From Hoyosella sp. YIM 151337 (GTDB taxonomy: Bacteria > Actinomycetota > Actinomycetes > Mycobacteriales > Mycobacteriaceae): 38,152 nt of DNA. The translations under genes and the position numbers were made by a program. Positions 5,568 to 26,699 of the stretch are shown here, piece after piece. Under the pieces are notes generated by a model that had not been told where the DNA came from, searched no databases, and saw only the letters and a list, made by a program, of their open reading frames with translations. The stretch lies in the NCBI RefSeq assembly GCF_026041215.1, contig NZ_JAPEIQ010000015.1, positions 1 to 38,152 on the forward strand. The letters run 5' to 3'. Every line of letters begins with the position of its first letter. Position 1 is the first letter of the stretch.

Positions 5568-5596
5568 ATACTAGAACATGTTATCGTTTCTGTCGA
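5568..5596 (-). promoter_or_regulatory. Predicted hsaA promoter
   Basis: On the minus strand a -35 TCGACA (5596-5591, 5/6 match to TTGACA) and a -10 TAGTAT (5573-5568, 4/6) are separated by exactly 17 bp, about 95 bp upstream of the hsaA ATG. A KstR-like box (5572-5585) fills most of the spacer. The mce4 promoter has the same design and the same -10 hexamer. Prediction only. Confidence 0.55.
5572..5585. promoter_or_regulatory. KstR-like operator, hsaA side
   Basis: TAGAACATGTTATC fits the KstR core TnnAACnnGTTnnA at every fixed position except the last (C for A). It lies in the -35/-10 spacer of the predicted hsaA promoter, so a bound TetR-type repressor would block RNA polymerase. Confidence 0.65.
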
Positions 5597-5683: not shown

Positions 5684-5697
5684 TTCAACACGTTGTT
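5684..5697. promoter_or_regulatory. Weaker KstR-like operator, kstD side
   Basis: TTCAACACGTTGTT keeps the central AACnnGTT but has T in place of the final A. It is centred 26 bp upstream of the better box at 5710-5723. It may be an auxiliary site, or chance. Confidence 0.4.
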
Positions 5698-5709: not shown

Positions 5710-5723
5710 TGGAACGTGTTATA
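5710..5723. promoter_or_regulatory. KstR operator, kstD promoter
   Basis: TGGAACGTGTTATA matches TnnAACnnGTTnnA at all fixed positions, 34 bp before the kstD ATG at 5757. A possible -10 TATAGA (5720-5725) overlaps its right end. A translation start at 5709 would put the operator inside the gene, which argues for the downstream ATG with its GAGGAG ribosome binding site. Confidence 0.7.
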
Positions 5724-5756: not shown

Positions 5757-7496
5757 ATGCAGGAACACGATGCTGTAGCCGCGTCGCAGGCCGCGCAGAG
5801 TTACGACGTAGTCGTCGTAGGCAGCGGCGCCGCAGGCATGACAGCTGCACTTGTGGCCGCCCACCACGGGCTCTCGGCGATTATCGTCGAAAAAACCAGC
5901 CGATTCGGCGGCTCCACTGCCCGGTCTGGGGGTGGCGTGTGGATCCCCGGGAACGAAGCCCTAGAGCGAGCTGGCGTCAAGGAGTCCCCCGATGCCGCAC
6001 GCGCGTACCTGCGCAGCATCATCGGGGACCACGTGCCGCCCGAGCGCATCGACAGTTACCTCGATCGCGGCCCCGAGGTCATCTCGTTCCTGCTCGACGC
6101 GACACCGCTCGAATTTCGCTGGGTTCCGAACTACTCCGATTACTACCCTGAAGCCCCCGGCGGCACTATCCACGGCAGGTCTGTGGAGCCAAAACCATTC
6201 GACGGCAAGCGGTTAGGCCCAGAGCTAGCGAACCTCGAGCCTGACTATGGCAAGGCACCACTGAACGTCGTCGTCACCCAGGCTGATTTCCGGTGGCTCA
6301 ACCTGCTCGCACGGCATCCACGCGGAATTCTTCAGGTACTCCGCGTCGGTCTGCGGTGGCTCCGCGCCAAGGTGTTCCGGCAGCATCTGCTCGGCCGTGG
6401 GCAGGCGCTTGCCGCCGCACTGCGCGCCGGTCTGATCGACGCCGGGGTTCCGCTGCTGCTGAATACGCCGCTCACCCGACTCGAGGTACGTGACGGTCGT
6501 GTCATCGGTGTCGTCGTCCACACTGGCGGCAGCGAAAAAATGCTGCGCGCACGGCGCGGAGTGGTACTCGCATCCGGTGGATTCGAACACAATGAAGTTA
6601 TGCGCAAGCAGTACCAGCGCGAGCCCATTGGCACCGAATGGACAGTCGGCGCCCGCGGAAACACCGGCGACGGCATCCGTGCGGGGCAAGACGCGGGTGC
6701 CGCGGTCGACTTCATGTCGGACGCATGGTGGGGACCGTCGATCCCACTCACCGGCGGACCCTGGTTCTGCCTGTCAGAACGATCGCTGCCTGGCAGCATC
6801 ATGGTGAACGATCGCGGTCAGCGATTCGTCAACGAATCCGCTCCTTACGTCGAGGCAACGCACGCCATGTACGGCGGCGAGTTCGGGCAGGGGGACGGCC
6901 CTGGCGAAAACATCCCGGCGTGGATTCTCTTCGATCAGCGCTACCGCAACCGCTACATGTTCGCCGGCGTCGGTCCGCGCCAGAAGCTGCCCGGCCGATG
7001 GTCAAAAGCCGGGATCGTGCAGCAAGCCCAGACCATCGGTGAACTAGCCGCGAAAATCGGTGTTCCGGCCGCTTCGCTGGAAGCCACCGTCGAGCGTTTC
7101 AACGGCTTCGCGCGCACCGGCCGCGACGAAGACTTCCACCGCGGTGAAAGTGCCTATGACCATTACTACGCAGATCCGCGCAACAAACCAAACCCGAGCC
7201 TCGCAGCCCTCGATACCGCGCCGTTCTACGCGGCCAAAATCGTGCCCGGCGATCTGGGCACGAAGGGCGGCTTACGCACCGACGCGCATGCCAGAGTGCT
7301 TCGCGAGGACGGCAGCGCGATCGAAGGCCTCTACGCCGCAGGCAACGCGAGCGCTCCGGTCATGGGACACACGTATGCCGGTCCTGGTGCGACCATCGGC
7401 CCCGCGATGGTTTTCGCGTACCTGGCAGTCGAGAACATGACTAACAAGGCTGACGCGCAGCCCCCTGAACACACCCAGCAACAAGGAGTGTCATGA
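5757..7496 (+). CDS. kstD: 3-ketosteroid delta1-dehydrogenase KstD
   Basis: FAD enzyme that introduces the C1-C2 double bond into 3-keto-4-ene steroids such as androstenedione; with KSH it triggers ring B opening. 579 residues from ATG 5757, preceded by GAGGAG. The FAD-binding GSGAAG is at residues 22-27, followed by GGSTARSGGGVWIP. The C-terminal block GHTYAGPGATIGPAM contains the Tyr and Gly that bind the C3 keto group in characterised KstD proteins. YSDYYPEAPGG supplies another active-site tyrosine region. The sequence closely follows M. tuberculosis KstD (about 563 residues). It is the first gene of a six-gene operon, with its stop overlapping the kshA start by ATGA. Cytosolic or membrane-peripheral; no signal peptide. 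Confidence 0.97.
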   Translation: MQEHDAVAASQAAQSYDVVVVGSGAAGMTAALVAAHHGLSAIIVEKTSRFGGSTARSGGGVWIPGNEALERAGVKESPDAARAYLRSIIGDHVPPERIDSYLDRGPEVISFLLDATPLEFRWVPNYSDYYPEAPGGTIHGRSVEPKPFDGKRLGPELANLEPDYGKAPLNVVVTQADFRWLNLLARHPRGILQVLRVGLRWLRAKVFRQHLLGRGQALAAALRAGLIDAGVPLLLNTPLTRLEVRDGRVIGVVVHTGGSEKMLRARRGVVLASGGFEHNEVMRKQYQREPIGTEWTVGARGNTGDGIRAGQDAGAAVDFMSDAWWGPSIPLTGGPWFCLSERSLPGSIMVNDRGQRFVNESAPYVEATHAMYGGEFGQGDGPGENIPAWILFDQRYRNRYMFAGVGPRQKLPGRWSKAGIVQQAQTIGELAAKIGVPAASLEATVERFNGFARTGRDEDFHRGESAYDHYYADPRNKPNPSLAALDTAPFYAAKIVPGDLGTKGGLRTDAHARVLREDGSAIEGLYAAGNASAPVMGHTYAGPGATIGPAMVFAYLAVENMTNKADAQPPEHTQQQGVS

Positions 7497-8623
7497 CGGC
7501 CTATCGCACGATCGACGCTGGCACGATGCCCGCCCGCTACGCCAGGGGATGGCACTGCATCGGTCTCGCCGAAAGCTTCAAGGACGGTGAACCTCACGCG
7601 ATAAAAGCGTTCGGCACCAAACTCGTGGTCTTTCAGAGCGAGGACGGAAAAATCAACGTCCTCGATGGGTACTGCCGGCACATGGGTGGCGACCTCACCG
7701 AAGGCACGATCAAAGGCAACGAGATAGCATGCCCGTTTCACGATTGGCGCTGGGGCGGTGACGGCAAATGCAAGTCGATCCCCTACGCCAAGCGAGTCCC
7801 GCTGCGTGCCCGCACACGTTCCTGGGTTACGTGTGAGCAGAACAAGCAATTGTTTATTTGGCATGACCCGGAAGGCCACCCGCCGCCAGAGGATGTCGCG
7901 ATCCCGCGACTCGACGCAGCGTTCTCAGACGAGTGGAGCGACTGGACGTGGAACACCGTTCCCATTGACGGCGCGAACTGCCGCGAACTCATCGACAATG
8001 TCGTCGACATGGCGCACTTCTACTACGTGCACTTCGCGTTCCCTACGTACTTCAAGAACGTGTTCGAAGGACACATGGCGACGCAGTACATGCACTCGCA
8101 CGGCCGACCGGACATGATGGCAAACACCAAGTATGAAAACGTTGACTCGCACCTGCGTTCCGAGGCGACATATTTTGGGCCCGCGTGGATGGTCAACTAC
8201 CTCTACAACGACTACAGCGGCTTCAAAGTGGACGTGATCCTTATCAACTGCCACTACCCCATCACCGAAAACTCTTTCATGCTGCAGTACGGGGTCATCG
8301 CCAAGAAGGTCGACGGACTCACCGACGAGCAGAACGCCAAACTAGCGAAGAGCATGGCGCGCAACTTCGGTGAAGGGTTCTTGCAGGATGTTGCGATCTG
8401 GAAGACGAAAGCGCGCGTCGACAACCCCCTGCTGTGTGAAGAAGACGGCCCGGTGTATCAGCTTCGGCGCTGGTACGAACAGTTTTACGTCGACGTCGCC
8501 GATGTCACCGATGACATGACGCAGCGGTTCGAGTTCGAAGTCGACACCACCAAGGCAAACCAAGTGTGGGAGGCCGAGGTCGCTGAGAACCTTGCCCGCA
8601 AGAAGGCCGAATCCGGAGTCTGA
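7493..8623 (+). CDS. kshA: 3-ketosteroid 9alpha-hydroxylase, Rieske oxygenase subunit KshA
   Basis: Terminal oxygenase of the two-component KSH that hydroxylates C9 of androstadienedione or its CoA-thioester analogues, leading to non-enzymatic opening of ring B. The 376-residue protein has the Rieske [2Fe-2S] ligands C61-x-H63 and C80-x2-H83 (YCRHMGG ... ACPFHDW). The mononuclear iron site is in NVVDMAHFYYVHF, with D172, H175 and H180. ATG 7493 overlaps the kstD stop (ATGA). The small Cys4 gene starts 2 nt after the stop, and its electron donor kshB follows that gene. Confidence 0.97.
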   Translation: MTAYRTIDAGTMPARYARGWHCIGLAESFKDGEPHAIKAFGTKLVVFQSEDGKINVLDGYCRHMGGDLTEGTIKGNEIACPFHDWRWGGDGKCKSIPYAKRVPLRARTRSWVTCEQNKQLFIWHDPEGHPPPEDVAIPRLDAAFSDEWSDWTWNTVPIDGANCRELIDNVVDMAHFYYVHFAFPTYFKNVFEGHMATQYMHSHGRPDMMANTKYENVDSHLRSEATYFGPAWMVNYLYNDYSGFKVDVILINCHYPITENSFMLQYGVIAKKVDGLTDEQNAKLAKSMARNFGEGFLQDVAIWKTKARVDNPLLCEEDGPVYQLRRWYEQFYVDVADVTDDMTQRFEFEVDTTKANQVWEAEVAENLARKKAESGV

Positions 8624-8625
8624 CC

Positions 8626-8961
8626 ATGTCCCGCACCAATGGATCGCCCCGCGAATGGCGAACAAGTTTCGGCGCACCCGCGACGCGACCGGAATCCCTC
8701 GCGGATCGGGCTGAGTTTCTCACCGGCGGTCTGGTGCCCATCCAGTGCCATCGCTGCGGCACCGAGGTACTAGTGAAAAAGAACAGCCTCAAACATACGA
8801 GCATCCAGTGGACCACAAGCCCCGCCTCAACCTGCCCGATCTTCGCTGCACAAGCAGATAGCGGGAGCCGCACAGCGTTGCTCGACTCGTGCCCCGAGCT
8901 GACGGAGAGCATCGCGCGCGCGGTCGCTGACGGACAGATAAGGGTAGGTGCCGGTGACTGA
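8626..8961 (+). CDS. Uncharacterised small four-cysteine protein between kshA and kshB
   Basis: A 111-residue protein I do not recognise functionally. It has four cysteines: C41-H-R-C44 in PIQCHRCGTEVLVKK, then C70 (STCPIF) and C89 (DSCPEL). This spacing (C-x2-C ... C ... C) suggests a metal site, either a zinc ribbon or less likely an iron-sulfur centre. There is no signal peptide or membrane segment. ATG 8626 is 2 nt after the kshA stop, and the stop lies beyond the kshB GTG, so it is embedded between the two KSH components and almost certainly co-translated. M. tuberculosis also has an uncharacterised gene next to kshA (Rv3527), but homology cannot be confirmed here. A KSH accessory or assembly role is inference. 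Confidence 0.85.
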   Translation: MSRTNGSPREWRTSFGAPATRPESLADRAEFLTGGLVPIQCHRCGTEVLVKKNSLKHTSIQWTTSPASTCPIFAAQADSGSRTALLDSCPELTESIARAVADGQIRVGAGD

Positions 8962-10021
8962 AACCCTGCCCGAACCAGCGCTGCCGGAAGCAGAGTTCTG
9001 CCGTGTCCGGGTGGCGCGTGCGATCACCGAAACCAGCGACGCACGGTCCCTGGAACTCGACGTGCCCCAGGAACTGGCCGAACGCTTCACGTACCGCCCA
9101 GGCCAGTTTCTGACCCTGCGGGTGCCCAGCGATCGGACTGGCTCGGTAGGTCGCTGTTACTCGCTGTCGTCCGCACCACACGAGGGTGGCCCGCTGAAGG
9201 TTACGGTCAAACGCGTCCGCGACGGGTACGGGTCGAACTGGTTGTGTGACAATGCCCGCGAAGGAATGTCGCTTGATGTCCTGCCGCCGGCTGGCGTCTT
9301 CACACCCAAGTCATTCGACACTGATCTCTTGCTGTTCGCTGGAGGAAGTGGCATCACACCGGTGATGTCCATACTGAAATCGGTGCTGGCCCGTGGCTCG
9401 GGGACGGTGACACTCGTGTACGCGAACCGCGACGAGAAGTCCGTCATATTCGCGTCAGAGCTTGCGGCACTCGCGGCGGCGCATCCCGACAGGCTGACGG
9501 TTCTGCACTGGCTCGAAAGCGTGCAGGGCCTTCCCACCGTCGAGCAATTAACCGCACTCGCCCGGCCTTGGGCGCAGCGTGAGGTGTTCATCTGCGGCCC
9601 TGCCGCGTTCATGGATGCGGCCGCCGATGCCTTGAGCAGATTGCAGGTCGATCGCAAGAAGATACACATCGAGAAATTCATTTCGCTGTCCCGCAATCCC
9701 TTTGAGGTCGAAGACGCCACCGGCCCCGAGAGCGACGATTCGGGTGAACCTGCGTCGCTCACCGTGGAACTCGATGGCGAACAGCACTCCTTCAGCTGGC
9801 CCCGAACAAAGAAGCTGCTCGATTTCCTCCTCGAAAAGGGTCTCGACGCTCCCTATTCATGTCGCGAGGGCGCATGCAGTGCGTGTGCGTGCCGGATTGT
9901 TACCGGAGAGGTGAAGATGCTGCACAACGAAGTGCTCGAGCCGGAAGATCTGGACGACGGCATAGTTCTTGCGTGCCAGTCACTGCCTGTCACTGACGAC
10001 GTTGCTGTCAGTTACGAGTAG
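8954..10021 (+). CDS. kshB: 3-ketosteroid 9alpha-hydroxylase, ferredoxin reductase subunit KshB
   Basis: NADH-dependent reductase that passes electrons to KshA. Domain order: an FAD-binding barrel with RCYSLSSAP, an NAD-binding domain with FAGGSGITPVMS and FICGPAAFM, a linker rich in acidic residues, and a C-terminal plant-type [2Fe-2S] domain with CREGACSACAC and a fourth cysteine in LACQ. The GTG at 8954 is preferred: AAGGG (8940-8944) lies 9 nt upstream, too close for the in-frame GTG at 8948. The start overlaps the end of the Cys4 gene. In M. tuberculosis kshA and kshB are far apart; here they are nearly adjacent in one operon. Confidence 0.96.
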   Translation: MTETLPEPALPEAEFCRVRVARAITETSDARSLELDVPQELAERFTYRPGQFLTLRVPSDRTGSVGRCYSLSSAPHEGGPLKVTVKRVRDGYGSNWLCDNAREGMSLDVLPPAGVFTPKSFDTDLLLFAGGSGITPVMSILKSVLARGSGTVTLVYANRDEKSVIFASELAALAAAHPDRLTVLHWLESVQGLPTVEQLTALARPWAQREVFICGPAAFMDAAADALSRLQVDRKKIHIEKFISLSRNPFEVEDATGPESDDSGEPASLTVELDGEQHSFSWPRTKKLLDFLLEKGLDAPYSCREGACSACACRIVTGEVKMLHNEVLEPEDLDDGIVLACQSLPVTDDVAVSYE

Positions 10022-10024
10022 GCC

Positions 10025-10903
10025 ATGCAGCTCGGAATTGTTCTCTTCACCAGTGATCGTGGCATCACACCCGCGACAGCAGCGCAGACGGCGGAACAAC
10101 TCGGATTCGATTCGTTCTATGTTCCCGAACACACGCACATGCCGGTGCAGCGCGAAGCATTGCACCCGTCAACTGGCACCACTGAACTGCCGGACGACCG
10201 CTACATGCGCACGCTCGATCCCTGGGTTGCGCTCGCGGCAGCGTCAGCGGTCACCGATCGCATCAGACTCGGCACCGCCGTAGCGCTGCCCGTCGAACAT
10301 GATCCCATCGCCCTGGCCAAAACTATTGCGTCAGTCGACCACTTGTCAGGCGGCCGCGTGATGCTGGGTGTCGGCTTCGGGTGGAACATCGACGAGCTCA
10401 CTGATCATGGCGTACCGCGCGGGCGGCGCCGCACCATGCTACGCGAGTATCTCGAAGCCATGTCTGCTTTATGGTGCGACGAAGTCGCAGCCTACGACGG
10501 GGAGTTCGTCGCATTCGGGCCGTCGTGGGCGTGGCCGAAACCGCTCCAGCAGATCGACGGCGACAAGCGGAAAATTCCGGTCCTCGTCGGTGCCGCGGGC
10601 ACTGAGAAGAACTTCGCGTGGATCACCAGGTCTGCCCACGGATGGATCACGACCCCCACTGAAACGGATATCACTGAGTCCATCGCACGACTGCAGAAGA
10701 TGTGGCAGGACGCCGGACGCGCAGGCCAGCCGCATATCACCGCACTTGCTGGTAAGCCCGACTCAACACAATTGGAGCGATGGCGCGATGCTGGGGTCAG
10801 TGAAGTGCTCTTCGGACTCCCCGACCGCTCGTCCGACGAGGTGATCGCGTACCTGCACCGACTCGCCGACAAGCTGAAACTTACTACCGCACAAGGAGCC
10901 TGA
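10025..10903 (+). CDS. LLM-class F420-dependent oxidoreductase
   Basis: A 292-residue luciferase-like (TIM-barrel) protein of the F420-dependent type. It starts MQLGIVLFTSDRGITP and has GFDSFYVPEHTHMP, RIRLGTAVALPVEHDPIALAKTIASVDHLS, GGRVMLGVGFGWNIDE and PVLVGAAGTEKN, typical of the single-subunit F420 oxidoreductases. ATG is 3 nt after kshB. M. tuberculosis has a similar gene in its cholesterol regulon (Rv3520c, from memory). The substrate is unknown; a steroid or acyl-CoA intermediate redox step is inferred from operon position. F420 rather than FMN is the family's usual cofactor but cannot be proven from sequence. Confidence 0.88.
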   Translation: MQLGIVLFTSDRGITPATAAQTAEQLGFDSFYVPEHTHMPVQREALHPSTGTTELPDDRYMRTLDPWVALAAASAVTDRIRLGTAVALPVEHDPIALAKTIASVDHLSGGRVMLGVGFGWNIDELTDHGVPRGRRRTMLREYLEAMSALWCDEVAAYDGEFVAFGPSWAWPKPLQQIDGDKRKIPVLVGAAGTEKNFAWITRSAHGWITTPTETDITESIARLQKMWQDAGRAGQPHITALAGKPDSTQLERWRDAGVSEVLFGLPDRSSDEVIAYLHRLADKLKLTTAQGA

Positions 10904-10905
10904 CC

Positions 10906-11763
10906 GTGCCAATCGACCCTTCAGTTGCCGTGGGCGCCGACCTTGGGGAAACGTCCTTCGCATGGGAGTCAAGCGACGTGCTGCTCTACCACCTCGGGAT
11001 CGGCGCGGGCCGCGACCCACTGGATCCACGTGAACTGCGCTACGCGTATGAGAAGGACTTGCGTGTGTTGCCGACCTTCGCGACGGTGGCGGCAACAATC
11101 CGCGCCACTGAGCCCCCAAAAGTGTCTTTCCCGGGCGTGGAAATCGATCTTACGAAAGTTGTCCACGGAAGCCAGGCTGTCATCGCGCACCGCCCACTTC
11201 CGCCGTCCGGTAAGGCAGTAGCGAAAAGCCGGATTTCGAATGTGTTCGACAAAGGCAAAGCTGCAGTGATCGTGCAGGAAACCGTGGTGACTGATTCAAA
11301 TGGGGAACCGCTGTGGACGTCCTCATCGAAGATTTTCGCTCGCGGTGAGGGGGGCTTCGGTGGTGAGCGCGGGCCGTCAGAACGCGTAGAAATCCCCGAC
11401 CGGGAACCGGACGTCACAGTCGAAACCCCGACGCTGCCCCAGCAGGCGTTGCTTTACCGGCTGTGCGGCGACCGCAACCCCCTGCATTGCGACCCCGGCT
11501 TCGCGCGTGCAGCCGGATTCGAGCAGCCCATCCTGCACGGCCTGTGCACCTACGGCGTCGTCGCCAAGGCCGTGACCGATGCGGTACTTGACGGCGACCC
11601 TACGGCCGTACGCTCATGGTCAGCCCGGTTTGCTGGCATCGTCCTGCCCGGCGAAATACTGCGCACGCGAATCTGGGACATCGGCGGCAGGTTCGTTGTC
11701 AGCACAGCGTCAGTGGAGCGTCGTGCGCCCGTCCTGGCTGATGCAGTGCTCGAACGAGTCTGA
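10906..11763 (+). CDS. MaoC-type double-hotdog enoyl-CoA hydratase (Rv3538/Hsd4B-like)
   Basis: A 285-residue (R)-specific hydratase with two hotdog folds. The C-terminal half contains the hydratase-2 signature YRLCGDRNPLHCDPGFARAAGF, with the Asp and His needed to add water to a 2-enoyl-CoA, followed by ILHGLCTYG. It aligns by eye over its whole length with M. tuberculosis Rv3538 (starts MPID, same length), a cholesterol-regulon protein linked to side-chain beta-oxidation. GTG start 2 nt after the upstream stop; last gene of the kstD operon. It is followed by the converging MFS gene and a strong hairpin at 11822-11854. Confidence 0.92.
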   Translation: MPIDPSVAVGADLGETSFAWESSDVLLYHLGIGAGRDPLDPRELRYAYEKDLRVLPTFATVAATIRATEPPKVSFPGVEIDLTKVVHGSQAVIAHRPLPPSGKAVAKSRISNVFDKGKAAVIVQETVVTDSNGEPLWTSSSKIFARGEGGFGGERGPSERVEIPDREPDVTVETPTLPQQALLYRLCGDRNPLHCDPGFARAAGFEQPILHGLCTYGVVAKAVTDAVLDGDPTAVRSWSARFAGIVLPGEILRTRIWDIGGRFVVSTASVERRAPVLADAVLERV

Positions 11764-20995: not shown

Positions 20996-22039
20996 CTAGA
21001 CCCCCAGTCCTTCAAGCTGATGTTCAGCACCCCCGAGCATGCGCGCCACGTCTTTGATGACCGAGTAGTGCCGGTGCAGCGGATACGTCACGTCCACCCC
21101 GATTCCACCGTGCAAATGGTGGCATGTGCGGACAGCGGGCAAACCGTGCTCTATCAGCCAGTACGCCGCGAGCGCGATGTCCTCGTCGGCGGCAAGCTTC
21201 TGAGCCAATCGCCAGGACGCCGCCTTGAGCGCGAGTTCCGTTGTCCGCGCGGCGATGTACACATCTGCTACTTGCTGGGCCACGGCCTGGAAGGTCGCTA
21301 GCGGTTTACCGAACTGTTCACGGGTGCGCAGGTGCTGTCGCGTCAGGTCGAGTGCCCCCGTCAGCGCCCCGCACCCGACGGCGACGGCCCCGATTGTGGC
21401 GCACCGCCGAAGGTACTCCACCGATTCGCCGGACGGCTGAGCGCCCAATGGGGCCGCCCGCACGCCGTCGAGCTGCACCACGTATTCGGGGTCTCCGGAG
21501 GACGTGGGCACGCGTGCCATCGATACGCCTGCCCCGCCGGGGTCGACGAGAAAAAGCCCCTGCCCGCTGTCAGTCTCAGCCGGAATCACTAAGCGATGGG
21601 CATGGTTCGCGTAAGGCACCACACTCGTGCGCCCGGTGAGTCGCCACTCGCCGCCCCGGGCCGCGGTGACCTCCCACGCTGCGCCGGGCAGCATCCCGGA
21701 AAGCACCGCGTTACCGGAACCAGCCTCTGGCAAGAGGCTATTCTGCTGTTGCGCTGTCCCAAAAGCCGCGATGGGCAGGGCACCGAGCGCCAGGGTTGCG
21801 AGAGCGGGTATGCGTGCGCCTTTGCGTGCGACCGCCTGGAGTACCACCACCAATTCAGGGATACCGAGTCCGTCTCCCCCGGCGCTGGCTGGGTTAGCCA
21901 GTGCGAGCAACCCGGCCTTGGCGAGGCCCGCCCAGAGTTCCTTATCGAACTCGCCGGACGCTCCTTCTGGATTGGCGTTCAGTACCGCCTGGGTGAGGCC
22001 ACTGATCTCGCGCTGGGTGTCGTCAAGCTGAAAGTCCAC
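20996..22039 (-). CDS. chsE1: Steroid side-chain acyl-CoA dehydrogenase subunit ChsE1 (FadE28)
   Basis: Partner of ChsE2 in the alpha2beta2 dehydrogenase. 347 residues from GTG 22039 (VDFQLDDTQRE), preceded by GGAG at good spacing. The frame continues upstream to 22321, but that stretch crosses the promoter/operator and lacks acyl-CoA dehydrogenase features. FadE28-type blocks: RTSVVPYANHAHRLVI, VPTSSGDPEYVVQLDGV, REQFGKPLATFQAVAQQVAD, VYIAARTTELALK and CHHLHGGIGVDVTYPLHRHY. First gene of the side-chain operon. A TATAAT -10 (22096-22091) adjoins a perfect KstR box (22078-22091). Confidence 0.94.
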   Translation of the reverse strand: MDFQLDDTQREISGLTQAVLNANPEGASGEFDKELWAGLAKAGLLALANPASAGGDGLGIPELVVVLQAVARKGARIPALATLALGALPIAAFGTAQQQNSLLPEAGSGNAVLSGMLPGAAWEVTAARGGEWRLTGRTSVVPYANHAHRLVIPAETDSGQGLFLVDPGGAGVSMARVPTSSGDPEYVVQLDGVRAAPLGAQPSGESVEYLRRCATIGAVAVGCGALTGALDLTRQHLRTREQFGKPLATFQAVAQQVADVYIAARTTELALKAASWRLAQKLAADEDIALAAYWLIEHGLPAVRTCHHLHGGIGVDVTYPLHRHYSVIKDVARMLGGAEHQLEGLGV

Positions 22040-22077
22040 GCAGCTACTCCGTTCCACAAGGCCAGTTACCGCAAAAT

Positions 22078-22091
22078 TGTAACACGTTCTA
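22078..22091. promoter_or_regulatory. KstR operator between chsE1 and the alpha/beta hydrolase gene
   Basis: TGTAACACGTTCTA matches TnnAACnnGTTnnA at all fixed positions. On the minus strand it is next to a perfect -10 TATAAT (22096-22091) and would cover the chsE1 transcription start. On the plus strand a possible -10 TATATT (22093-22098) begins 2 bp to its right. A single bound repressor could shut both divergent genes. Confidence 0.75.
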
Positions 22092-22121
22092 TTATATTGT
22101 TGAGCGAGACTAGCCACGCAA
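22091..22121 (-). promoter_or_regulatory. Predicted chsE1 promoter
   Basis: Minus-strand -10 TATAAT at 22096-22091 (6/6) with a poor -35 TTGCGT at 22121-22116 and a 19-bp spacer. Transcription would start near 22084, giving a leader of about 45 nt before GTG 22039. The -10 is convincing; the -35 is weak. Confidence 0.5.
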
Positions 22122-22144
22122 GAGGCAGCGGAGGAACACTCAGG

Positions 22145-23035
22145 ATGCGCTCTCAACAACAGTCGCGACGCCGCAGCGGTTGGCGCCTTCTCGACCGCCG
22201 CGTCTCCGCACCGCCCACGACTGACCTGCCCGCGCCACAGCCGATACACCTGCCTGGACGTGGGGATACCGCGATCTTCGACACAGGACCGCGCGATGGC
22301 GAACCGCTCATCCTCCTGCATGCGCTCTCCTGCACCAGCCTCTTGACCTGGTACCCGTCCGTGTCCGCGCTAGCAGCGCGATACCGGGTCATCGGACTTG
22401 ACCAGAGATGGCACGGAGCGGGGATAAAGTCCAACACGTTCTCGTTAGAGGATTGCGCCGATGACGTTGCGGCGCTCGCCACCGAACTCGGGATCGATGA
22501 GTTCGCGGTCGCGGGATACTCGATGGGATCGTTCGTGGGGCAGTTGGTCGCCCGACGGCACGCTGACCGGTTGCGCGGCCTGGTGCTGTGCGCGAGCACC
22601 CGGAGCATTCGGCGCAGGCAGCGGTATCGCACCGCGTTCGACACCTCGATTCGCCTGGCAGCCCGCCTGCCACCCCGAGCGCGCCGCCGCTTGAGCACCG
22701 CCGCACCCAACCCCGACCTTCCTGTTGATCATCGCTGGCTATTCGGTGAATTCCGCAAGACCACCGTGTCCGCAAACCTCGCCGCGATTAACGCGATCGC
22801 CAGCTTCAACTCGACCGCTTGGGTGCGAGAGATACGCACGCCAACAGCTGTGGTTGTGATGCAGCGTGACGGCGCTATCCCGCCGCGCGATCAGCGGGCA
22901 ATCGCGAAGGCTATACCAGGTGCACGACACTTCGAGGTCGATGCCGGCCATGCCGGGTGTGTGTTCAATCCCGACAAGTTCGTGCCGGCGCTCGTTTCCG
23001 CGTGCGACTGGGTGCACGAGCAAGCTCGTCAATGA
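22145..23035 (+). CDS. Alpha/beta hydrolase, probably KstR-controlled, function unknown
   Basis: 296 residues from ATG 22145, preceded by GGAGGA. The upstream part of the open frame (from 21596) is antisense to chsE1 and is rejected. Nucleophile elbow G124-Y-S126-M-G128 and a C-terminal catalytic histidine, H269 in DAGHAGC, indicate an active serine hydrolase of about family length. LILLHALSC occupies the oxyanion-hole position instead of the more usual HG. The first 30 residues are basic and probably a cytosolic extension. It is divergent from chsE1 across a perfect KstR box; a sterol ester, lactone or CoA-thioester substrate is inference. The 3' end overlaps the converging acyltransferase gene by 7 nt. 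Confidence 0.88.
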   Translation: MRSQQQSRRRSGWRLLDRRVSAPPTTDLPAPQPIHLPGRGDTAIFDTGPRDGEPLILLHALSCTSLLTWYPSVSALAARYRVIGLDQRWHGAGIKSNTFSLEDCADDVAALATELGIDEFAVAGYSMGSFVGQLVARRHADRLRGLVLCASTRSIRRRQRYRTAFDTSIRLAARLPPRARRRLSTAAPNPDLPVDHRWLFGEFRKTTVSANLAAINAIASFNSTAWVREIRTPTAVVVMQRDGAIPPRDQRAIAKAIPGARHFEVDAGHAGCVFNPDKFVPALVSACDWVHEQARQ

Positions 23036-24479: not shown

Positions 24480-26648
24480 TTACCTGGGGAGGCCGAGCAA
24501 TCGCTCGGCTGCGACATTTTTCAGTATCTCGGTGGTTCCCCCCGCGATGCTGAGGCAGCGGGTCAGCAGAAATTCGTGCTGAACCGAGCGCGCCTCCGCT
24601 GAATCCGCCAAGGCCCCCTCCGTGCCGAGCAACTCCAGTGCGGTCTCCGCGACCTCTTGCCGATGGGTTACCCCGATGAGTTTGCGAACACTCGACGCCG
24701 CACCCGGACCGTGCTGCCCCTCGCCTTCAATCTGGTTCAAGACCGAACGAAGGTCGAGCACCGCACCAGCAATACTGTCCGTAATGAGTGCACCTACCCG
24801 TGGTGCTGCCGCGGCCGTGCCGTCCAGCCCTTCGAGGAGGCGCTCAAGAAGCCCCCCGATGGTGTCGCCAGCGCTCATGGAAACACGCTCGTTGGCAAGC
24901 GTGGTGCGGGCGAGTTTCCAGCCGTCCCCTTCGGCACCCACGACACAGTCACAGGGCACGAATACGTCGTCGAGAAAGACTTCGTTGAATCTTTCTTCCC
25001 CGGTTATTTCGCGCAGCGGCCGAATGTCGATTCCGGCACTCCTCATATCGAGGAGAAAGTACGTGATGCCTTTGTGTTTGGGCACGTCGGGGTTGGTTCG
25101 CGCCAAACAGATCGCCCAGTCCGCCTCGTGTGCGAGCGACGTCCAAACCTTCGACCCGGTTAGCCGCCAGCCGCCGTCGGCGGGCACGGCGCGTGTCCGC
25201 AACGACGCAAGGTCCGAACCAGCCTCCGGCTCACTGAATAGCTGGCACCACGCGATGTCGCCGAGCAAGGTAGGCCGCAAGAACCTCGCGCGCTGCGTAT
25301 CCGAGCCGTGTTCGAGGATGGTAGCGCCCGCCCAGCCACCGATAACGAGGCTCGGGCGGGTAATACCTGCCGCTTCGAGTTCTTCATCGATGATCAGCTG
25401 TTGGGCGGGCGTCGCGGCCAGGCCGTAAGGGGCTGGCCAATGTGGCATAAAGTAGCCCATTTCCACGAGTCGCTGCCGGTGCGCGGCGGTGGGCAATGCG
25501 GAGATCTCAGCAACGTCCGCGCGGACGCGTTCGATCCAGTCCGCGCTGACGGTACCGGGCGACACGTCGAGATGGAGCTGACGCCGGGCGCCGCGAGCGG
25601 CGAGGTCTGTGGTGGCACGCAGCCAATAGTCACTGCCGCCGAGCAGTTGACGCAGTGAGACCGCCCGCCTCAGGTACAAATGCGCGTCGTGTTCCCAAGT
25701 GAAGCCAATTCCGCCAAGGACTTGAATGCAGTCTTTTGCGTTGTCAACTGCCGCGTCGAGGCATGCTGCCGCTGCAGCCGCAGCGCTCAGACTGCCTTCG
25801 GAGGCCGATATCGCACAGGCGGCATCCCACGCGAGTGCCGCGGCCTTTTCCGCGCGGCACAGCATCGTGGCACACAGGTGCTTCACCGCCTGGAACGCCC
25901 CGATCTTTGCCCCGAATTGCTCGCGCGTCTTCGCGTACTCGGCGGCGGTTTTCAGCGACCATGCTGCGATGCCGGATGCTTCCGCTGATGCGAGCGTGGC
26001 GGCGAGATCGCGTACCGCTGCCGAGGTCAGGCCATGCACGACAGCGTCCGCGGCGAGCGGCGTGTTGTCGAAGCGGACGCGTCCGGCTGCTCCTCCGAGA
26101 TCCACCAGCTCCCGCGGCTCGACTCGCATCCCGTCCTGACGGGGCGGGACGACGACCCACCGCTCGCCCGCGGCGAGCTGGACCGGTATGAGAAGATAGC
26201 CGTCTTCGGTGGCCCCGAAGACACACTCGAAGGATCCCGTCAGCACGAGTCCCGTGTTTCCAGTTTCACTCGCCTGAACCTCACCCGGCGTGAAAACAGC
26301 TACACCAGCGGCTGTCTGTCCAGTCACGAGTGTCGGCACGGTTTCCTTGGCGATCACGGCGTCGGGGTAGCGCGCGAGAATCGTCGCCGCGAGCACAGTC
26401 GGCAGTAGCGGGCCGGGCGCAAAGGCCTCCGCTGCCGCTTCCAGCCCCGCCGCAGCGTCGGCCACAGAACCACCTGCTCCGCCGAGCTCTTCCGGCACCG
26501 CCACACCGAAAACGCCGATCTCGGCAAGCTCGGTCCAGCCAGCCTGCGCATCTCCAGAGCGGACAGCCTGGCGCGGGTCAGCTCGCCGTGCCCACGCGTG
26601 TAACGCTCGGGCTAGTTCACGCTGTGTGTCGGTGCTTGCGATTGGCAC
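24480..26648 (-). CDS. fadE34: Fused two-domain acyl-CoA dehydrogenase FadE34/ChsE3
   Basis: A 722-residue protein made of two acyl-CoA dehydrogenase units in tandem. The N-terminal half ends around GGIGFTWEHDAHLYLRRA. The C-terminal half carries WCQLFSEPEAGSDLASLRT, GSKVWTSLAHEADWAICLAR and AGGTTEILKNVAAERLLGLPR. It is the fused counterpart of ChsE1/ChsE2; FadE34 in M. tuberculosis (Rv3573c, about 711 residues, also divergent from kstR) oxidises the five-carbon side-chain steroid-CoA. GTG start at 26648 with AGGAGG just upstream. A 22-bp KstR palindrome lies 30 bp before the gene. It leads the operon with the WS/DGAT gene. Confidence 0.95.
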   Translation of the reverse strand: MPIASTDTQRELARALHAWARRADPRQAVRSGDAQAGWTELAEIGVFGVAVPEELGGAGGSVADAAAGLEAAAEAFAPGPLLPTVLAATILARYPDAVIAKETVPTLVTGQTAAGVAVFTPGEVQASETGNTGLVLTGSFECVFGATEDGYLLIPVQLAAGERWVVVPPRQDGMRVEPRELVDLGGAAGRVRFDNTPLAADAVVHGLTSAAVRDLAATLASAEASGIAAWSLKTAAEYAKTREQFGAKIGAFQAVKHLCATMLCRAEKAAALAWDAACAISASEGSLSAAAAAAACLDAAVDNAKDCIQVLGGIGFTWEHDAHLYLRRAVSLRQLLGGSDYWLRATTDLAARGARRQLHLDVSPGTVSADWIERVRADVAEISALPTAAHRQRLVEMGYFMPHWPAPYGLAATPAQQLIIDEELEAAGITRPSLVIGGWAGATILEHGSDTQRARFLRPTLLGDIAWCQLFSEPEAGSDLASLRTRAVPADGGWRLTGSKVWTSLAHEADWAICLARTNPDVPKHKGITYFLLDMRSAGIDIRPLREITGEERFNEVFLDDVFVPCDCVVGAEGDGWKLARTTLANERVSMSAGDTIGGLLERLLEGLDGTAAAAPRVGALITDSIAGAVLDLRSVLNQIEGEGQHGPGAASSVRKLIGVTHRQEVAETALELLGTEGALADSAEARSVQHEFLLTRCLSIAGGTTEILKNVAAERLLGLPR

Positions 26649-26677: not shown

Positions 26678-26699
26678 ATATTAGAACGCGTTCTAATAT
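26678..26699. promoter_or_regulatory. KstR operator, 22-bp perfect palindrome between fadE34 and kstR
   Basis: The arms ATATTAGAACG and CGTTCTAATAT are perfectly complementary with no spacer, giving the strongest KstR-type site in the window (TAGAACGCGTTCTA core). On the plus strand a -10 TATAGT (26703-26708) follows after 3 bp, so kstR is probably autoregulated. The same site should repress fadE34, as described for the equivalent divergent pair in mycobacteria. Confidence 0.85.

What the first reader, a model, noticed from the sequence alone, without database searches (positions are those of the whole stretch)
8626..8961. Uncharacterised Cys4 protein translated between the two components of 3-ketosteroid 9alpha-hydroxylase
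The gene is 2 nt after kshA, and its end overlaps the kshB start. Its four cysteines (C41-x2-C44, C70, C89) suggest a metal-binding site. Gene position argues for a role in making or coupling KSH, a Rieske system normally described as two-component. I know of no assigned function for such a protein.
Basis: partly seen in the sequence, partly recalled or inferred. Interest (0 to 1): 0.72.

Follow-up and report, generated by a model that had tools for sequence, protein, structure and literature searches.

The report
Steroid-hydroxylase companion protein, four conserved cysteines
A small unnamed protein with four unchanging cysteines is encoded between the two known parts of a bacterial steroid-ring-opening enzyme and, in the actinobacterial genomes sampled, goes together with the oxygenase part of that enzyme, so it is probably an overlooked helper of it.

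Summary
The ORF is real: 8626-8961 (+), 111 aa, 2 nt after the kshA stop and overlapping the kshB start; cysteines C41, C44, C70, C89. Codon-position differences to Hoyosella altamirensis (29/22/65) show it is coding. Its family is unknown to Pfam and NCBIfam; four cysteines are kept in 98 of 98 distinct cores held. The link to KshA is very tight: of 301 family genomes the same 239 carry both and 62 neither; of 150 genomes of the order the same 49 carry both, and outside the family 32 of 32 copies directly follow kshA. Six KshA-less genomes with a KstD-like gene lack it. Six of six proteobacterial KshA loci read lack it nearby, and published KSH works with KshA and KshB alone. Best reading: a KshA-dedicated, probably metal-stabilised accessory protein acting in assembly or stability (inferred). 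Its position matches M. tuberculosis Rv3527, listed only as hypothetical. Metal, partner and mechanism are untested; neither structure model matched a known fold convincingly.

The parts
8626..8961 (+). uncharacterised Cys4 protein, 111 aa; core residues 27-107
8746..8757 (+). codons of C41-x2-C44 (CxxCG), placed between two strands in the models
8779..8811 (+). codons of K52-N-S-x2-H-T-S-I-Q-W62, the most conserved stretch
   Evidence: [HQ]T[SA]x[QE]W in 97 of 98 cores
8833..8835 (+). codon of C70
8890..8892 (+). codon of C89
8615..8618 (+). GGAG, plausible ribosome site of the ORF inside the kshA 3' end, 7 nt before ATG
   Evidence: sequence
7493..8623 (+). kshA, Rieske oxygenase component of 3-ketosteroid 9alpha-hydroxylase, with conserved C-terminal tail
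   Evidence: PF19298 307 bits; 572 bits to 2zyl and 582 to 4qdc; tail
8948..10021 (+). kshB, reductase component (start GTG 8948 or GTG 8954, overlapping the ORF)
   Evidence: PF00970, PF00175, PF00111
5709..7496 (+). kstD, 3-ketosteroid delta1-dehydrogenase (true start uncertain), overlaps kshA start
   Evidence: annotated kstD at the same place in Tsukamurella, 70% identical
10025..10903 (+). LLM-type oxidoreductase, next gene of the run
   Evidence: only 26% identical (66 bits) to an annotated F420-dependent LLM protein in L122; label otherwise recalled
10906..11763 (+). MaoC-type hydratase, last gene of the run
   Evidence: 75% identical to an annotated MaoC-type protein in L122
5572..5723 (+). 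three KstR-type palindromes (5572-5585 and 5684-5697 with one mismatch; 5710-5723 exact) at the front of kstD
   Evidence: motif consensus recalled

Best explanation
The ORF encodes a small, KshA-dedicated accessory protein of actinobacterial 3-ketosteroid 9alpha-hydroxylase. It is probably made by translational coupling right after KshA and before KshB (the gene layout is shown, coupling is inferred). Its four invariant cysteines probably hold one structural metal, most likely zinc, in a small domain of a beta-hairpin plus helices (predicted). It binds KshA, possibly through the C-terminal tail that actinobacterial KshAs share, and helps the trimer to fold, keep its Rieske cluster and mononuclear iron, or stay stable in the cell (inferred). 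It is not a catalytic component and is not strictly needed in vitro.
For: The same 239 of 301 family genomes carry protein and KshA, 62 neither; the same 49 of 150 in the order, and 32 of 32 copies outside the family directly downstream of kshA; in the phylum sample 15 of 326 have KshA of 250 bits or more and the same 15 have the protein. Copy number never exceeds KshA_C copy number in the 239 genomes. It is specific to true KshA: 0 of 8 weak KshA_C relatives (149-168 bits) have an adjacent copy, against 47 of 69 strong ones; 6 phylum genomes with only weak KshA_C (118-142 bits) lack it. KstD alone does not bring it: six of the 62 negative genomes have a KstD-like gene (E < 1e-70) and no copy. 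The set moves together: isolated kshA-protein-kshB sets in a Streptomyces plasmid and in G575. Distances of the protein and its adjacent KshA correlate, r 0.90, 87 pairs. Four cysteines kept in 98 of 98 cores. 20 of 28 members carry net negative charge, median pI 5.6, which fits protein rather than nucleic-acid binding, though the window protein itself has pI 7.7. The KshA tail motif is in 98 of 98 distinct actinobacterial KshAs held and 0 of 6 proteobacterial ones.
Against: 22 of 69 strong KshA genes in 24 genomes have no adjacent copy; 11 of 60 copies lie 2.7-17 kb from a KshA, five of which directly follow kstD; 3 of 35 KshA genes of the order outside the family have no adjacent copy. Two of seven actinobacterial plasmid KshA records (L132, L133) have no copy found, although their KshAs have the tail. 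Six proteobacterial KshA loci have none within 10-12 kb. KshA plus KshB alone are active (PMC4064121, PMC6680482, passages). PMC6429209 lists one M. tuberculosis strain (mti) as lacking Rv3526 but not Rv3527 (passage). No metal, binding or mutant data. The KshA tail follows phylogeny, and nearly all tails seen came from loci fetched through the protein, so it may have nothing to do with it. The models have mean pLDDT 67 and 80 and no convincing PDB match. The correlation of distances is also expected from linkage alone.
Confidence: 0.42

Rival explanations
1. It is a protein of the steroid ring-opening step more broadly, for example one that bridges KstD and KshA or hands the unstable 9-hydroxy-diene-dione product on, rather than a KshA helper.
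For: Of 12 copies read that are not directly downstream of kshA, six (L075-L080) directly follow kstD; kstD overlaps kshA in the window.
Against: Outside the family 32 of 32 copies follow kshA; six of the 62 KshA-less family genomes have a KstD-like gene and lack it.
Confidence: 0.2
2. It is an effector or coupling protein: it binds KshA during turnover and tunes substrate range, electron transfer or coupling, as small effector proteins such as MmoB do in soluble di-iron monooxygenases.
For: Gene order oxygenase - small protein - reductase (35 of 39 loci); strict partner specificity; a rate or coupling effect would be missed in assays that only show activity.
Against: No such protein is known to me for Rieske oxygenases (recalled); MmoB-type proteins are not known to me for a conserved cysteine site (recalled); no kinetic data.
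Confidence: 0.15
3. It is an electron carrier with an iron or Fe-S centre between KshB (or KstD) and KshA.
For: Four invariant cysteines; the gene lies between oxygenase and reductase.
Against: KshB already has a Fer2 domain and KSH is described as two-component without a separate ferredoxin (PMC4064121, passages); the spacing CxxC-x25-C-x18-C fits neither rubredoxin (two CxxC) nor plant-type [2Fe-2S] (recalled motifs); no ferredoxin model matched above cut-off.
Confidence: 0.08
4. It is a zinc-finger regulator of the steroid genes or of its own operon's translation.
For: CxxCG knuckle-like motif; small size; weak zinc-finger hits in PDB sequences (best E 0.04) and weak zinc-ribbon hits in Pfam (Zn_ribbon_ISL3 E 0.049 in 2 of 21 members).
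Against: Acidic in 20 of 28 members; inside the catabolic gene run; KstR-type sites already suggest a regulator; cysteine spacing differs from the fingers I know (recalled).
Confidence: 0.08
5. A passenger gene that stays next to kshA by linkage only.
For: Linkage alone would also give correlated distances.
Against: Co-occurrence in 239 of 239 and 49 of 49 genomes, including copies some kb away from kshA, repeated within one genus (g6: 12 genomes with both, 17 with neither); residues under strong purifying selection; the M. tuberculosis gene in the same position is listed as needed for survival in macrophages and mice (PMC6429209, table and note seen).
Confidence: 0.03

Closest known systems
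Rv3527 of Mycobacterium tuberculosis, hypothetical protein after kshA Rv3526
   Same: PMC6429209 lists Rv3527 as hypothetical with note a (proven essential in macrophages and mice), and both Rv3526 and Rv3527 as missing in the leprosy species (passages).
   Different: Rv3527's own sequence was not compared here; its reductase gene kshB (Rv3571) lies elsewhere; I found no assigned function in print.
Two-component 3-ketosteroid 9alpha-hydroxylase KshA/KshB
   Same: The flanking genes are clear KshA and KshB.
   Different: The described enzyme has no third protein (PMC4064121, passages); here a third gene sits between the two and accompanies KshA in the sampled actinobacteria.
Small zinc-ribbon or treble-clef proteins
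   Same: CxxCG between two strands, then a strand and helices with C70 just before one.
   Different: Third and fourth cysteines are 18 residues apart instead of a second CxxC; no fold or sequence match above threshold.
Effector proteins of soluble di-iron monooxygenases (MmoB, DmpM; recalled)
   Same: Small third gene next to oxygenase and reductase, partner-specific.
   Different: Other enzyme class, no cysteine site known to me; function here untested.
KshC (PMC6680482)
   Same: A KSH gene name already in use.
   Different: That KshC is a second KshA-type oxygenase, not this protein (passages).

Membership tests
3-ketosteroid 9alpha-hydroxylase gene set | KshA with Rieske and KshA_C domains | tested here: met
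   PF19298 307 bits, PF00355 81 bits; Rieske CxH-x16-CxxH at 61 and D-x3-D-x2-H-x4-H at 168 (motifs recalled)
3-ketosteroid 9alpha-hydroxylase gene set | KshB with FAD, NAD and C-terminal 2Fe-2S domains | tested here: met
3-ketosteroid 9alpha-hydroxylase gene set | the ORF is a working part of the enzyme | not testable with these tools
   needs deletion and pull-down
Unnamed KshA-associated Cys4 family (Rv3527 position) | C-x2-C, C, C and HTSxQW core | tested here: met
   98 of 98 cores with four cysteines, 97 of 98 with the motif
Unnamed KshA-associated Cys4 family (Rv3527 position) | occurs with KshA in the genome | tested here: met
   239 of 239 and 49 of 49 genomes; one marginal hit without KshA, G507, with two stops
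Unnamed KshA-associated Cys4 family (Rv3527 position) | sequence match to Rv3527 itself | not tested
   no named M. tuberculosis record of that gene was at hand; position only
Zinc ribbon or treble clef | zinc knuckle CxxCG in a hairpin | tested here: met
   sequence and models
Zinc ribbon or treble clef | second ligand pair as CxxC | tested here: not met
   C70-x18-C89
Zinc ribbon or treble clef | matching fold in PDB | tested here: inconclusive
Zinc ribbon or treble clef | binds zinc | not testable with these tools
   needs metal analysis
Ferredoxin or rubredoxin | diagnostic cysteine spacing and profile match | tested here: not met
   CxxC-x25-C-x18-C (reference motifs recalled); no Fer2, Fer4 or rubredoxin match over cut-off; best Fer4-type hit Fer4_4 at E 0.22, 3 of 21 members
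Rieske ferredoxin | CxH ... CxxH cluster motif | tested here: not met
   absent from the 111 aa

The most novel reading that the evidence does not exclude
3-ketosteroid 9alpha-hydroxylase of actinobacteria is in the cell a three-protein system, and this Cys4 protein is the first dedicated effector or maturation partner of a Rieske oxygenase, docking on an actinobacterial C-terminal tail of KshA; its tuberculosis counterpart would be a missing part of cholesterol ring opening.
Probability: 0.2. Interest if true: 0.85.

Novelty: new variant of a known kind. Interest (0 to 1): 0.66.

Why it matters
KSH opens the steroid ring in sterol breakdown and is used to make steroid synthons; loss of activity on purification and inclusion bodies in E. 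coli have been reported for KshA-type proteins (PMC4064121, PMC6680482, passages). A companion protein found with KshA in all 270 distinct sampled genomes with a strong KshA match, and not part of the heterologous set-ups described in those two papers' passages, would be a cheap thing to add and test, and would give a role to a conserved hypothetical gene of cholesterol degraders.

Tried and rejected

Limits of the genome counts: the searches scored only the best 15 or 14 first-look candidates per genome; in 24 genomes searched again with all (or 150) candidates the copy numbers were the same as. The KshA threshold differs between samples (E 1e-40, 1e-30, 1e-60). Of 35 plasmid records with a KshA match I read 13 (7 actinobacterial, 6 of 7 proteobacterial at 48-52%); 21 weaker ones at 25-32% and H20 were not read.

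Print searches behind 'no assigned function found': in the held open-access PMC library only. Papers: PMC6429209, PMC8228715, PMC4064121, PMC6593523, PMC3068626, PMC6680482 and PMC10398937, passages only; all others only in search listings.

Full report
Observation. The 111-codon ORF at 8626-8961 (+) is as described: ATG two bases after the kshA stop, TGA 8959-8961 overlapping either possible kshB start (GTG 8948 or 8954), and exactly four cysteines, C41, C44, C70, C89. The neighbours are certain: KshA (PF19298, 307 bits; PF00355) and KshB (FAD, NAD and Fer2 domains). Upstream and overlapping kshA is kstD; downstream follow an LLM-type oxidoreductase and a MaoC-type gene. The order kstD - Rieske - hypothetical - ferredoxin reductase - MaoC is annotated in Tsukamurella, beside hsaA, hsaC and hsaD. 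Three KstR-type palindromes lie at the front of kstD, part of 16 matches with at most one mismatch in the window against 5.4 expected (the motif is recalled), which fits a cholesterol-type regulon.

Is it a gene? Length alone is poor evidence because antisense ORFs of 130 and 135 aa overlap it. Conservation is decisive. A sequence search of named genomes gave 39 loci in Hoyosella, Amycolatopsis, Haloechinothrix, Actinophytocola, Rhodococcus, Antrihabitans, Dietzia, Marmoricola and one unclassified actinomycete bin. Against Hoyosella altamirensis the codon-position differences are 29, 22 and 65, and 39 identical residues carry a synonymous change.

Family features. In 21 members the invariant positions are M1 C41 C44 V50 K52 H57 T58 S59 Q61 W62 C70 C89 S95 G103. 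In 28 more diverse members C41, C44, K52, T58, W62, C70 and C89 remain. Over 98 distinct cores from the loci held at that time, 98 keep the four cysteines and 97 keep [HQ]T[SA]x[QE]W. H57 is not strictly invariant: two of 20 members printed have Q. Long forms (about 100-130 aa) and short forms (about 85 aa, starting just before C41) exist. 20 of 28 members have net negative charge, median pI 5.6; the window protein has pI 7.7. No Pfam or NCBIfam family matches over cut-off, and no PDB sequence does convincingly.

Company it keeps. In the 39 named loci KshA lies upstream on the same strand in 39 and KshB downstream in 35; L024 and L026-L028 lack KshB there. The own genome has a second copy, again between a KshA (64%) and a KshB (55%). 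In 301 genomes of the family, 239 hold the protein and 239 hold KshA_C at E 1e-40 or better; the two sets are identical and 62 genomes hold neither. Copies of the protein never exceed KshA_C matches (equal in 123 genomes, fewer in 116; 520 against 678 in all; the KshA count includes weak relatives). Relatedness inflates any p-value, but the pattern also varies inside one genus, g6, with 12 genomes holding both and 17 neither (my count). In 326 genomes of the phylum, 15 have KshA of 250 bits or more and the same 15 have the protein; a sixteenth protein hit, G507, is marginal (E 2.3e-4, two stops) and I take it as spurious; six genomes with only weak KshA_C (118-142 bits) lack it. In 150 genomes of the order, the same 49 hold both, and all 32 copies in the 30 genomes outside the own family lie 120-286 bases after a KshA domain match; 3 of the 35 KshA genes there have no adjacent copy. 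The samples overlap; together they give 270 distinct genomes with both (239 + 1 + 30) and, apart from G507 and the six genomes with only weak KshA_C, none with only one at the thresholds used. Searches scored only the best 15 or 14 candidates per genome; a fuller rescoring in 24 genomes gave the same copy numbers.

Where the picture is less tidy. In those 24 genomes of 22 genera, 44 of 60 copies are directly downstream of KshA, 3 directly upstream, 11 in the same cluster 2.7-17 kb away (one on the other strand) and 2 on contigs without KshA; 47 of 69 strong KshA genes have an adjacent copy and 0 of 8 weak ones (149-168 bits). I read 12 of the 16 copies that are not directly downstream: six (L075-L080) directly follow a kstD, L074 follows one at about 0.5 kb, L086 and L087 are just upstream of kshA, and L088-L090 are in neither place. 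Plasmid records: 5 hold the protein, each with a KshA in the stretch read; the other two of seven actinobacterial plasmid KshA records (L132, L133) and six proteobacterial KshA loci, 48-52% identical to the window KshA (L127-L131, L134), have no copy in the stretch read. So the protein looks like an actinobacterial addition, not a universal need of KshA.

KshA or KstD? Of the 62 family genomes without KshA and without the protein, 10 have a KstD-like match at E 1e-20 and six at E below 1e-70 (G004, G035, G028, G180, G190, G280, the last with a stop inside). KstD without KshA therefore does not bring the protein. Isolated cases carry the set together: a Streptomyces plasmid (L125) and the class-level genome G575 (L108) both have kshA - protein - kshB. 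Distances between proteins and between their adjacent KshAs correlate (r 0.90, 87 pairs, 0 of 2000 permutations as high), which linkage alone could also give.

Structure. AlphaFold of the whole protein: mean pLDDT 67, pTM 0.51, residues 1-23 under 50; of the core 27-107: pLDDT 80, pTM 0.69. Both show strand - CxxCG turn - strand - strand, then helices that begin next to C70 and C89. This is what a metal-held small domain would look like, but coordinates could not be inspected, so that the four sulphurs meet is not shown. PDB fold searches gave nothing convincing.

A possible docking place. Actinobacterial KshAs share a C-terminal tail (R-[FY]-E-x-E-[IVL]-D ... W ... [EQIV][VI]-x2-N): 98 of 98 distinct sequences held, 0 of 6 proteobacterial ones, although the Sphingobium protein has a loosely similar tail. 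Nearly all of these KshAs were fetched through the protein, the tail is also present in L132 and L133 where no copy was found, and it follows phylogeny; it is only a lead.

Known work. KSH is described as a two-component enzyme; KshA and KshB of Rhodococcus and M. tuberculosis were purified in active form (PMC4064121, passages), and KshA or KshC with KshB made in E. coli convert AD (PMC6680482, passages). The same papers report a loss of activity on purifying M. smegmatis KshA and inclusion bodies for KshC with one of two vectors, compatible with a missing helper but no proof. In M. tuberculosis the gene numbered after kshA Rv3526 is Rv3527. PMC6429209 lists Rv3527 as hypothetical, proven essential in macrophages and mice by its table note, and missing together with Rv3526 in the leprosy species; it also lists one M. 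tuberculosis strain (mti) as lacking Rv3526 but not Rv3527 (passages). Only three papers in the held library name Rv3527.

Reading. That the protein serves KshA is well supported (I would put about 0.8 on a functional link). How it serves is inferred. I prefer assembly or stability, because activity in vitro does not need it, it is outnumbered by KshA in many genomes so that one copy may serve several, and a Cys4 site of this spacing looks structural. An effector role is the most interesting rival, an electron carrier or regulator less likely.

Noticed in passing
L041 326-3095 (own genome, contig C38): A second kshA - Cys4 protein - kshB set in the same genome, 64% and 55% identical in the enzymes, followed by a MaoC-like piece.
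   Followed up: partly
window 22078-22091, 26682-26695: Two further exact KstR-type palindromes, one inside the ORF called at 20996-22321 and one just beyond the start of the ORF called at 24480-26648: either the first ORF is drawn too long or more operons belong to the regulon.
   Followed up: no
L083 844-2211, L122 2749-4191; also L082 9771-11123: A second, distant KstD-like flavoprotein (27-28% identical) recurs beside kstD, in L083 and L122 between hsaA and kstD; it is not seen there in the window.
   Followed up: no
L010 6305-7885 (Amycolatopsis sacchari): The kshB match is split by about 550 bases in the middle, as if interrupted.
   Followed up: no
L133 3433-4545 and 12030-13142: A Prescottella plasmid has two copies of the same KshA in opposite orientation and no Cys4 protein in the stretch read.
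   Followed up: partly
L122 (record NZ_LR134448.1, 18.7 kb, called plasmid 6): The stretch read of this Tsukamurella record (15.2 kb) is full of steroid-type genes without plasmid genes; it may be a chromosome piece.
   Followed up: no
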